From assembly GCA_002684495.1 (NCBI GenBank), contig NYVG01000029.1, positions 26,496 to 90,495 on the forward strand: a DNA stretch of 64,000 bases. The letters run 5' to 3'. Position 1 is the stretch's first letter. Each line of letters starts with the position of its first letter. The stretch comes from Gammaproteobacteria bacterium (GTDB lineage Bacteria; Pseudomonadota; Gammaproteobacteria; Pseudomonadales; Azotimanducaceae). A model generated the notes under the pieces. It saw only the letters and a program-made list of their open reading frames with translations, ran no database searches and was not told the DNA's origin. Shown here in pieces: positions 20,643 to 52,495 of this stretch. Both the position numbers and the translations under genes were made by a program.

Positions 20643-20989
<347 letters not shown>

Positions 20990-21104
20990 ACCGTTTTCGC
21001 GGTCCCTACTCGGGTCGGATTTAGCGCCGTTGGCTACTGGCCATGCAACCGAAAAGTTCTTTTATATCCGTAATTTATGCCATCTATTCAGTACTCAATC
21101 GCGC

Positions 21105-46606: not shown

Positions 46607-46650
46607 GGTTGTCGGGACTTGTTCTACCATAAGTGGAGTAACGTGAAAGC

Positions 46651-46708
46651 CTCAGGAGCGAAGTAAGAGCAGGAGGGGGGAGGAGAGCATCGTCACTTCG
46701 CCCCTGAG
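46651..46708 (+). repeat. Hairpin element copy E1 with GGGGAGGAGAG loop
   Basis: CTCAGGAGCGAAGT / ACTTCGCCCCTGAG 14-bp stem with one mismatch; loop core at 46677-46687. Confidence 0.7.
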
Positions 46709-46804
46709 ACACCTCTATAATTGCCAATGAGCTGTGAATTTCGCAGCAACAGCTACAAGAAATTCGTTCACACGAATTTCAGCTCAAAACCGTGGGGCTC
46801 AAAG

Positions 46805-47671
46805 CTATGGCTGCTCACCTAGGGTCAGCGGCCGCTCATCTGACTGAACCCATTCGGACATAGAACCGTCGTAAACGCTGACATTATGCTGGCCCATCAA
46901 CATACAGGCGAAAGCATCTATGGTTGCAGCGATACCCCCGCCGCAATAGGCTATCACGCGCTCTTCCCGCAGGAGGTTCGCGGTCGATAAAGTCTCTGCC
47001 AATTGGTCTGCGTGCTTGAAATACTCGTTTTCAAGTATTGCGTCGAAGTGCAGGAGCAAGCTCGAAGGAATGTGCCCGCGCCGGTGGTAGTAAAAGTCGC
47101 CGGTGCCGGCGTAGAGTTCTGGCGATAGGGCATTGACCACGCATACTTGTTGGTTGATTGCTTGTTCGACCTCGTTTGTGGAAACGATCGCGTTAAGGTT
47201 CGGTTGCGCTGCAAAAGTTGTCGCCGGATAGCGTTCTATGCCGCTCCTCAGGGGTAAGTTGGCCCTGCGCCATGCACTCATATTTCCGTTCAATACCACC
47301 ATATTTGTGTGGCCTGCATAATATAGACACCACCAGGCGCGGGTAGCCCACATGATATGCCCGGATGAATACAACACCACCTTATGGTTCGCAGATATCC
47401 CAACATCACCAATGGACTTGGCTAGGGCCTCAGGTGTAAGCAGGGTATTGTTGAAAGGTGAAGTTGTGTCCGACCAATCGTTAAGGAGGTCAATAAACCC
47501 CGCACCAGGGATGTGTTCTTTTTGGTAGCGCGCCAAGTCAGGCTCGGCGGTGTAACCGTTTGATGAGCGGTGTAGGAGCACCGAGGCGTCAAAAATTCTG
47601 ACGTTTTCGTCGTCCAGTAAGGTGGCGAGTTCAGCTGATTCAATTAAGTACTCTGGATGCACATAGTTCAT
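46805..47671 (-). CDS. Two-domain rhodanese-family sulfurtransferase
   Basis: Tandem rhodanese architecture; C-terminal catalytic-type loop AYCGGGIAAT. Confidence 0.9.
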   Translation of the reverse strand: MNYVHPEYLIESAELATLLDDENVRIFDASVLLHRSSNGYTAEPDLARYQKEHIPGAGFIDLLNDWSDTTSPFNNTLLTPEALAKSIGDVGISANHKVVLYSSGHIMWATRAWWCLYYAGHTNMVVLNGNMSAWRRANLPLRSGIERYPATTFAAQPNLNAIVSTNEVEQAINQQVCVVNALSPELYAGTGDFYYHRRGHIPSSLLLHFDAILENEYFKHADQLAETLSTANLLREERVIAYCGGGIAATIDAFACMLMGQHNVSVYDGSMSEWVQSDERPLTLGEQP

Positions 47672-47960
47672 TCGAATCTCCCGGCGGTATTAGCATGCAA
47701 ATGACAGCATGGCGTGCGCGTTGATTCATTATCTTAGCCAAGATGTTTGTCGATTGCATAGCCGCTAGCGTTCGCAACGCGTGGTAGGGCGCAAACGGTG
47801 CTGCGGCAACTGCTTGCGGCGAGGCGAACAATCCTTGGCCCTCGTATACTTACTTTGCTGTCCTAACCAATTTCCGTATTCGCTTCAGTTGCGATTCTGA
47901 GGACGGGGTTTTTATGGCAGCAGGAAATTTGAAGACCAAAAATTCAACTACGACTATTAT

Positions 47961-48113
47961 ATGTCTAACGAGTTCTATGGGCTCCTGTCCCAAGCCTCGT
48001 TCTATGCACATATGTATTTGCGGCAGCTGACTGATATTGGCCGCGGTTATCGCTCGGTCGGACGATTGGCTGAAACAGAACTAGCCGGGAGTTTGGCCGC
48101 CCCCGAGCAATAA
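47961..48113 (+). CDS. Putative 50-aa small protein, possibly 5'-extended by a frameshift
   Basis: MSNEFYGLLSQASFYAHMYLRQLTDIGRGYRSVGRLAETELAGSLAAPEQ; reading frame stays open upstream to about 47902. Confidence 0.45.
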   Translation: MSNEFYGLLSQASFYAHMYLRQLTDIGRGYRSVGRLAETELAGSLAAPEQ

Positions 48114-48131: not shown

Positions 48132-48228
48132 GCCTTGGGGACTCGGCTTCTTGCGGGGAGGAGAGAGCGCGTGATGTAGGCAGTCCCCAAGGCAAGCAAT
48201 AAGTCGGAGCTTTGCTGATTTTCTTTAG
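48132..48228 (+). repeat. Hairpin element copy E2 plus conserved downstream block
   Basis: GCCTTGGGGACT / AGTCCCCAAGGC perfect 12-bp stem; loop core GGGGAGGAGAG 48155-48165; TCGGAGC-N9-TTTCTTTAG at 48204-48228. Confidence 0.78.
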
Positions 48229-48307: not shown

Positions 48308-48868
48308 TTACGCAGCTCTCAGCCAAGGCATGTGCTCCATGAAGTCTTTGTTAGGAAGCTCCATGGTGGCTAGTTTTTCATTTACCGCGTTTAGGACATC
48401 ATCTCCGTACAAGTCAATCGCCGACATCTTCTGCCAAAATTTATAACCCCCTGGCGTGCTGATGTGGCCGACAAACGCATCCATGACGTAGCGCAGGTTG
48501 TCGTCTGTTTCGAGGCCTTCTGCGTTGAGTTTAAGCAGGGTGTCGAGTTGGTTTCCCATAGCAAAAAGAATCACCACAGCCTTCGTCTGACGGTCGGGCT
48601 CCATGGCGTCGAAGTTGTTTAGCAGCTCGCGATACTCCGACGTATTGTTGCCGATATAAAACATCTTCTCCTGCCATATATGACGTCGTTCCCGCTGGGA
48701 CGCCGCCAAAGCTAACCGATTAGATGCCCGAGTCTGAACACCTAAAAATATTAGTGACAGCATTACTCCAACGCCGCCAAGAAATTCGCCCCAAACACTC
48801 AAAGTCTCCATGCGCCCACTCCCGTTACTAAAGCCTGCAGAATACGAGCTATTGATCGCCAGCAACAA
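48308..48868 (-). CDS. Hypothetical single-TM protein, paralogue A
   Basis: LSVWGEFLGGVGVMLSLIFLGVQTRASNRLALAASQRERRHIWQEKMF; coherent ORF resembling 49007..49528. Confidence 0.75.
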   Translation of the reverse strand: MLLAINSSYSAGFSNGSGRMETLSVWGEFLGGVGVMLSLIFLGVQTRASNRLALAASQRERRHIWQEKMFYIGNNTSEYRELLNNFDAMEPDRQTKAVVILFAMGNQLDTLLKLNAEGLETDDNLRYVMDAFVGHISTPGGYKFWQKMSAIDLYGDDVLNAVNEKLATMELPNKDFMEHMPWLRAA

Positions 48869-49006: not shown

Positions 49007-49528
49007 TTATAAATACGGCAGCAGGTCATATAGTTTTGGTGAATCTGCTGCGGATTCTAAGAGTCTTTTCTCAAAATGCTCAGAGGCATCGCGCCCCCAG
49101 GAAGCCTTCAAGCTAGGCCAAACCGCCTGCCCACCCTCGGTAGCAAACATTGCCAAGCACAGATTTTCGAATCCATCATAGGAAGCCGCATTGATATAAC
49201 CGTCTCGCCGCATGTACCACGCTTGCTCCGCCAGAAGCATGTAATCAACGACCCACATATTAAAGATGTGTTTCTTCTCCTGATTCGCAGTTGCATAGTC
49301 CCGCATGCACTCTGAAACAGCGACCAGAATTCTTAGGTCGGAACGCGTAAGGGAGAAAAAGCTCCGTGCTTGATTCAGGATTTCTCTCTGATTACTTGCT
49401 CTTTCCATCTCGAGGTTTTGCCTCAGCTGATGCCCCACAAATAAAAACGAGACGAGGAAAGCCAATGCAGCCGTTAATTCCGATATCGCTCCTAACGCAT
49501 CCCAGTTCATATCCCTCTCCGATTTCAA
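49007..49528 (-). CDS. Hypothetical single-TM protein, paralogue B
   Basis: ALGAISELTAALAFLVSFLFVGHQLRQNLEMERASNQREILNQARSFFSLTRSDLRI. Confidence 0.75.
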   Translation of the reverse strand: MKSERDMNWDALGAISELTAALAFLVSFLFVGHQLRQNLEMERASNQREILNQARSFFSLTRSDLRILVAVSECMRDYATANQEKKHIFNMWVVDYMLLAEQAWYMRRDGYINAASYDGFENLCLAMFATEGGQAVWPSLKASWGRDASEHFEKRLLESAADSPKLYDLLPYL

Positions 49529-51460: not shown

Positions 51461-51487
51461 ATCCTCAACCGTTCCGGCGCAACACCA

Positions 51488-52203
51488 TCATTCGCCCATT
51501 GCCTCTAACAGTTCTAATAACAGGTTGATGATGTCCAAATACAAGTTGATTGCGATTTGCAAAGCCGTTTGCCAATCGTTTACGCCTTGTCCGTCTAGAT
51601 AGGCGAGTCGGTAAAAGTCGTAGACCAAAAATAAGGTAAAAAGTATGGCGCCTATAATTGCAATCACGCGCCGCTGTTCGGGAGCAAAACCGGTAAAAAG
51701 CATCACCAGCCGGCAAAGGATGAGGGCGGCAAGAGCAAAAACGAGACAAATGCCCAACCCGGAAAAATGGATTCCTGAATACATGCCAACCAACGCGGCG
51801 CCAAAAGTAATCAGTACTGTGAGTTGTAACCCGCGCGGCCATCATTTTCATCCATATTCAGCATAATCATGGCGAGTACCGGACCCAAGGTGATGCTTGT
51901 GGTTGCCATCGTCAGTAAACCCATGGTGAGGCTGAAATGACTCAAGAAAACCATGGCGAACATTGAAATTATCGAAATCCAAGTCAATACCTGCAGCCCA
52001 TAGCTATCCTCGGCAGGTTGAAGATCTAACTCGCCCTTGCTGTTGGTTTCTTTAGTAAACGTCACGCCAAGTACACTTGTACCTGTTTCAGACGCGAGTC
52101 GCGCACGCTTAATGACAAATAGGCAGATCGCGAAGACTAGAAAGAGTTGGCTGCCCAGTATTACGAAGGTTTTGAAAATAAGTGATGACTCCATTGTCCG
52201 CAC
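51488..52203 (-). pseudogene. Bax inhibitor-1/YccA-like membrane protein interrupted by a 1-nt frameshift
   Basis: ORF 51811..52203 ends ...NMDENDGR(AGYNSQY*); the -1 frame continues (R)RGLQLTVLITFGAALVGMYSGIHFSGLG... into ORF 51488..51793. Confidence 0.75.
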
Positions 52204-52401: not shown

Positions 52402-52495
52402 GCCTTGGGAGCCTAACTGTTTCGTGGAGGGGAGAAGAGACTGAATCAAGCTCCCGAGGCACGAGGCAAATCGGAGCAATCCCAAATTTCTTTAG
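52402..52495 (+). repeat. Hairpin element copy E3 plus conserved downstream block
   Basis: GCCTTGGGAGC / GCTCCCGAGGC 11-bp stem with one G-U; loop core GGGGAGAAGAG 52429-52439; TCGGAGC-N9-TTTCTTTAG at 52471-52495. Confidence 0.78.

What the first reader, a model, noticed from the sequence alone, without database searches (positions are those of the whole stretch)
48132..48228. Repeated structured intergenic element: E2 and E3 share stem, purine loop and a fixed-distance downstream block
Seen: E2 (48132-48228) and E3 (52402-52495) both have a GCCTTGGGR... stem, a long loop with GGGGAGRAGAG, then exactly 10 nt to TCGGAGC, then exactly 9 nt to TTTCTTTAG. Identical spacing with diverged spacer sequence indicates common ancestry and selection on structure. 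I do not recognise this as a known riboswitch or repeat family. Inference: a small RNA family or a mobile palindromic element; exposed GGA motifs could bind a CsrA/RsmA-type protein.
Basis: partly seen in the sequence, partly recalled or inferred. Interest (0 to 1): 0.78.

Follow-up and report, generated by a model that had tools for sequence, protein, structure and literature searches.

The report
Flagellar-sigma-driven small RNA family, opposite strand
Two look-alike hairpins in a marine bacterium are probably two copies of a small regulatory RNA gene, read from the opposite strand to the one first proposed, switched on by the flagellum-specific sigma factor and carrying a loop that could block ribosome-binding sites; this is a sequence-based prediction without transcript data.

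Summary
In detail: E2 and E3 share a stem, a loop motif and exactly spaced downstream blocks. The strand is wrong. On the minus strand the "fixed-distance blocks" form a sigma-28/FliA-type promoter, TAAAGAAA-N11-TCCGAYTT (consensus TAAAGTTT-N11-GCCGATAA), 7 nt upstream of the stem, so transcription should start at the stem base. The predicted RNA is one hairpin with a C/U-rich, anti-Shine-Dalgarno-like loop.

Covariance models found 10 copies in 8 species of one genus of marine Gammaproteobacteria (OMG/K189A) and none elsewhere in the family. All 10 keep TAAAG-N16-CGA-N10-GCC; 6 of 12 stem pairs show compensatory changes. The same box precedes flgM, flagellin, fliS and motA genes in these genomes, and one copy lies in a flagellin cluster.

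Best explanation: a FliA-dependent trans-acting sRNA family with paralogues, working like Campylobacter CjNC1/CjNC4, with a loop like the alphaproteobacterial alpha-r14 RNAs, but not shown to be homologous to either. The CsrA and mobile-element ideas are not supported. Targets are unknown (a crude test for flagellar targets was negative), the 3' end is undefined, and there is no transcript evidence. A sibling hairpin (E1, 46645-46715) shares the loop but lacks the FliA -35 box.

The parts
48220..48227 (-). E2 promoter -35 element TAAAGAAA
   Evidence: Invariant TAAAG in 10 copies; flagellar-trained matrix ranks this site 2nd of 127,944 window positions
48201..48208 (-). E2 promoter -10 element TCCGACTT, 11 nt from the -35 octamer, 7 nt before the stem
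   Evidence: Invariant CGA at fixed spacing; distance to stem 7 nt
48132..48193 (-). E2 sRNA hairpin: stem 48193-48182 with 48143-48132, loop with CUCUCUCCUCCCC
   Evidence: Stem, covariation, fold z -3.7
52487..52494 (-). E3 promoter -35 element TAAAGAAA
   Evidence: top-ranked site of the window by the flagellar-trained matrix
52468..52475 (-). E3 promoter -10 element TCCGATTT, 7 nt before the stem
52402..52460 (-). E3 sRNA hairpin: loop with CUCUUCUCCCCUCC
   Evidence: z -4.0
46645..46715 (-). E1, probable sibling hairpin with loop GAUGCUCUCCUCCCC, no FliA -35 box
46805..47671 (-). Rhodanese-family gene between E2 and E1 (context, not part of the RNA)
   Evidence: Pfam Rhodanese 2e-22; same order in G017
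51465..52203 (-). Membrane-protein gene downstream of E3, apparently frameshifted here (context)
   Evidence: Two ORFs where relatives have one of 235 aa; own sigma-70-like promoter 52285-52256 between it and E3

Best explanation
E2 and E3 are paralogous genes of a small trans-acting RNA on the minus strand. Each is transcribed by RNA polymerase with the flagellar sigma factor FliA (sigma-28) from a promoter 7 nt upstream of the hairpin, so the RNA begins at the stem base. The stem presents a C/U-rich loop that most likely pairs with purine-rich Shine-Dalgarno regions and lowers translation of target mRNAs while late flagellar genes are on. Shown by sequence: conserved promoter-like box at fixed spacing, covarying stem, paralogues, restriction to one genus. 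Inferred: transcription, FliA dependence, pairing with mRNAs. Unknown: targets and 3' end.
For: All 10 copies in 8 genomes keep TAAAG-N16-CGA-N10-GCC, with no invariant base in the 16-nt spacer, matching the published FliA consensus TAAAGTTT-N11-GCCGATAA. The own genome has fliA above the curated cut-off. The same box lies upstream of flgM, flagellin and fliS genes. Trained on eight such sites, a matrix ranks E3 and E2 first and second of 127,944 window positions. R3 also picked up the region upstream of a MotA gene. G060's copy lies in a flagellin cluster. Stem: 6 of 12 pairs with compensatory changes, 0 of 500 shuffles as high. No shared downstream gene, and a convergent one in G032, favour a free RNA. 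At the E3 place of G002 promoter and stem are both decayed.
Against: No transcript data. Against the bare E. coli consensus E2 and E3 match only 9 and 10 of 16 bases, not better than shuffles; only G012, G022 and G060 are significant alone. The matrix was trained on sites retrieved with a pattern taken from the elements, so that test is partly circular. No intrinsic terminator follows E2 or E3. Flagellar-gene start regions are not better loop targets than control genes. The loop motif is missing in G034 and reduced in G060. Most flagellated relatives of the genus have no detectable copy.
Confidence: 0.75

Rival explanations
1. The hairpin is a FliA-transcribed 5' leader that regulates the next gene on the same strand in cis.
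For: In G012 and G022 a flavin monooxygenase-like gene starts about 140-150 nt downstream on the same strand, and its GGGGGAA Shine-Dalgarno could pair with the loop. E3 precedes a membrane-protein gene by about 255 nt.
Against: Downstream genes differ between loci. In G032 the next gene is convergent. For E2 the next gene is about 520 nt away, and the gene after E3 has its own sigma-70-like promoter.
Confidence: 0.12
2. Plus-strand RNA, with a purine-rich loop binding a CsrA/RsmA-type protein.
For: The hairpin also folds on the plus strand, and the loop there has GGA motifs.
Against: The blocks that would be its 3' part have the sequence, spacing and conservation of a minus-strand FliA promoter. 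No sigma-70-like promoter or terminator was found around E2. E1 folds much better on the minus strand, z -5.1 against -0.5.
Confidence: 0.06
3. A small mobile palindromic element (MITE- or REP-like).
For: Inverted repeats at several unrelated places in the genus.
Against: At most two clear copies per genome, genus-restricted; copies strongly diverged and with promoter-type conservation.
Confidence: 0.03
4. Chance similarity or plain transcription terminators.
For: E2 lies just after the end of a plus-strand gene region.
Against: R1 finds copies not used in its training at E 4e-29 and 9e-24; no T run after E2 or E3.
Confidence: 0.01

Closest known systems
CjNC1 (CJnc10) and CjNC4 (CJnc170/FlmR) of Campylobacter jejuni (PMC4626219, PMC11187230)
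   Same: Two paralogous, free-standing small RNAs, transcribed from sigma-28 promoters and apparently acting on 5' UTRs of mRNAs.
   Different: Those are under 50 nt with a terminator-like stem and tested in a fliA mutant; here the hairpin starts at the 5' end, has a 35-40-nt loop, no clear terminator and no experiment. No sequence relationship was tested directly.
Alpha-r14 / NfeR1 and the cuckoo/CcsR RNAs of Alphaproteobacteria (PMC10746234, PMC10253847)
   Same: Anti-Shine-Dalgarno C/U-rich motif in unpaired parts of hairpins while the stems differ strongly between siblings, as in E1, E2 and E3.
   Different: Alpha-r14 has three hairpins each with CCUCCUCCC, and CcsR RNAs are co-transcribed with a DUF1127 gene from an RpoH promoter. 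Here there is a single hairpin with a FliA-type promoter, in Gammaproteobacteria.
UhpU, MotR, FliX and FlgO sRNAs of E. coli (PMC10578931)
   Same: Sigma-28-dependent small RNAs that act on flagellar regulation.
   Different: Those are derived from UTRs of mRNAs and bind Hfq; here the genes are intergenic and Hfq was not tested.

Membership tests
Sigma-28 (FliA)-dependent small RNA (functional class) | FliA-type promoter at a suitable distance from the RNA start | tested here: met
   TAAAG-N16-CGA in all 10 copies, -10 end 7 nt before the stem; same box at flagellar genes
Sigma-28 (FliA)-dependent small RNA (functional class) | Host encodes FliA | tested here: met
   fliA in G000, G022, G032 and G034 over the cut-off, partial at a contig end in G017; missing in the incomplete or fragmented G002 and G012, which have flagellins; G060 not tested for fliA but has flagellins
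Sigma-28 (FliA)-dependent small RNA (functional class) | Transcript lost in a fliA mutant | not testable with these tools
   Needs an experiment
Alpha-r14 / cuckoo RNA family | Several hairpins each with CCUCCUCCC in the unpaired part | tested here: not met
   One hairpin per gene; motif CUCUCUCCUCCCC or a variant, absent in G034
Any Rfam 15 family | Score at or above the gathering threshold, or a credible weaker match | tested here: not met
   Only RNase P in the window; only chance-level hits at E up to 5 around E1, E2, E3
CsrA/RsmA-sequestering RNA | Several exposed GGA motifs in hairpin loops | tested here: not met
   On the inferred sense strand the loop is pyrimidine-rich
MITE/REP-type mobile element | Multiple similar copies in a genome | tested here: not met
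   One or two clear copies per genome

The most novel reading that the evidence does not exclude
An undescribed sRNA family of marine OMG-group bacteria in which siblings with unrelated stems and different promoters (FliA for E2 and E3, another for E1) present the same anti-Shine-Dalgarno loop, so that flagellar and other signals converge on one set of mRNAs.
Probability: 0.35. Interest if true: 0.65.

Novelty: new variant of a known kind. Interest (0 to 1): 0.52.

Why it matters
Free-standing FliA-dependent sRNAs are known from few bacteria (Campylobacter in the papers read here; in E. coli they derive from UTRs). A conserved, paralogous, intergenic family in uncultured marine bacteria would extend post-transcriptional flagellar control to a new group, with a simple architecture of promoter, stem and seed loop that is easy to test in E. 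coli. It also shows how reading the wrong strand turns a promoter into an apparent RNA domain.

Tried and rejected
Plus-strand model R1 found the family, but its conserved 3' block made sense only on the other strand. Rfam at relaxed thresholds gave only chance-level hits. Searches of 392 genomes sampled from the order and 207 of the family found nothing outside the genus. The loop was compared with start regions of genes on flagellar contigs and of window genes: no enrichment, the flagellar mean was weaker (-16.0 against -17.9 kcal/mol for E2, -11.4 against -14.4 for E3), with crude gene calls. Exact complement of the E2 loop core (GGGGAGGAGAG) in the own genome: only E1 and E2 themselves, so no perfect mRNA target. 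Terminator scan: none by E2, none downstream of E3 on the minus strand. Weak R3 hits in G010 and G034:C155 were judged coding or chance and left out; G036 (E 0.07) is an E1-like hairpin without a FliA -35 box.

Full report
What is there. The distal block TCGGAGC-N9-TTTCTTTA is unique to these two places in the genome. A covariance model from E2, E3 and the G002 orthologue (R1) found strong copies in G017 and G032 and a weaker one in G012, so this is a family and not a chance pair.

Which strand. On the minus strand the block reads ACTAAAGAAAATCAGCAAAGCTCCGACTTATTGCTT, followed directly by the stem. G012 and G022 have TAAAGTTT-N11-GACGATTA and TAAAGTTT-N11-GACGATGT. The published FliA consensus is TAAAGTTT-N11-GCCGATAA (PMC2859248; PMC7286023). 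In the alignment of 10 copies from 8 genomes (A9), TAAAG and CGA are invariant 16 nt apart, the stem always starts 10 nt after CGA, and the spacer has no invariant column. The -10 octamer ends 7 nt before the stem, so the RNA should begin at the stem base (inference from usual start distances).

Is the box FliA-like in this genus? The own genome has fliA. The same box stands upstream of flgM (L043:3894, L082:2062, L087:5215), of two flagellin genes and of fliS in G060. A matrix trained on eight sites from flagellar contigs, without the elements, ranks E3 first and E2 second among 127,944 window positions. Caveat: the training sites were retrieved with a pattern taken from the elements (TAAAGWWW-N13-CGA), so this is not fully independent. 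Against the bare E. coli consensus E2 and E3 alone are unremarkable (9 and 10 of 16 bases), while G012, G022 and G060 are significant. Less circular support: model R3, searched through the genus, returned among its weakest hits (E 3-4) the regions directly upstream of a MotA-family gene in G011 and its near-identical counterpart in G023, TAAAGTCT-N11-ACCGATTG.

Structure. On A9, 98.3% of cells pair, 6 of 12 pairs have changes on both sides, and none of 500 shuffles reaches this; structures slid by 1-3 columns drop to 60% or less. Related copies inflate such counts, but the compensatory changes fall in several different copies. Both strands of the short hairpin fold well, so folding does not choose the strand for E2 and E3; the promoter does. 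For the sibling E1 the minus strand folds much better (z -5.1 against -0.5).

Distribution. Searched: 40 genomes of the genus, 207 of the family, 392 sampled from the order. Copies were found only in the genus: G000 (two), G022 (two), G002, G017, G032, G012, G060 and G034. The G034 copy is cut by a contig end and scores weakly (E 0.03), as does the second G022 copy (E 4e-4); both are accepted because they keep the promoter box, spacing and stem. A promoter-blind stem-and-loop pattern over 85,462 species found five loci, all of them these same copies; one is titled K189A clade bacterium AH-326-F19, a clade NCBI places in the OMG group. G060's copy lies in a flagellin cluster. E2's place beside the rhodanese gene is kept in G017. 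At the E3 place of G002 only remnants remain: the -35 core reads CAAAG, the CGA core is lost and the stem is about 5 bp.

Function. There is no common downstream gene, and in G032 the next gene is convergent, which favours a free RNA over a leader. The loop of most copies is C/U-rich and could pair with Shine-Dalgarno regions; this is inference, G034 lacks the motif and G060 keeps only UCUCCC. Flagellar mRNAs are not better targets by a crude test. In alpha-r14 RNAs a conserved anti-Shine-Dalgarno motif sits on hairpins with divergent stems. Campylobacter CjNC1 and CjNC4 are paralogous sigma-28-dependent RNAs. The present family may work like a combination of the two but is not shown to belong to either.

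E1. At 46645-46715 (minus), about 90 nt after the stop of the rhodanese gene, a third hairpin has the loop GAUGCUCUCCUCCCC. The word GGGGAGGAGAG occurs in the own genome only in E1 and E2, and the 15-nt loop word is exact in G000, G017, G021 and G036. E1 has no TAAAG box; G021 has GCCGATTAT before the stem. Kinship with E2 and E3 is likely but unproven (R3 15.7 bits).

Limits. There is no transcript, no defined 3' end and no known target. The genomes searched are largely metagenome-assembled and partly incomplete, so absence of a copy or of fliA in a genome is weak evidence.

Noticed in passing
window 46645-46715 (-): E1: a third hairpin with the loop GAUGCUCUCCUCCCC, conserved in G017 and G021 with an upstream GTGAAC...TTCAC inverted repeat and without a TAAAG box; probably a sibling sRNA under another promoter.
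   Followed up: partly
L055:1501-1660 (G060): In the G060 copy the loop GTCTCCCAAAAG has an exact 12-nt complement just downstream (CTTTTGGGAGAC), giving an alternative fold that would exclude the main stem.
   Followed up: no
window 51465-52203 (-): The membrane-protein gene downstream of E3 is split into two ORFs here, while relatives have one ORF of 235 aa: frameshift or assembly error.
   Followed up: no
window 47838-48110 (+): Remnant of a gene that is an intact 277-aa ORF in G002 (L048:1516-2349), ending just before E2.
   Followed up: no
window 48308-48868 and 49007-49528 (-): Two neighbouring small membrane-protein genes with similar N-terminal plan, function unknown.
   Followed up: no
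L043 (G000:C37) and L082 (G000:C27): Two near-identical flgM/flgN/flgA regions on different contigs of the window's assembly: a duplicate or mixed strains.
   Followed up: no
L097:1572-2126 (G017) and L045:5348-5905 (G032): A conserved 184-185-aa protein without Pfam match has a FliA-type box upstream in both genomes; possible new FliA-regulon member.
   Followed up: no
window 20643-20992 (+): Bacterial RNase P class A RNA (Rfam RF00010), ordinary.
   Followed up: no
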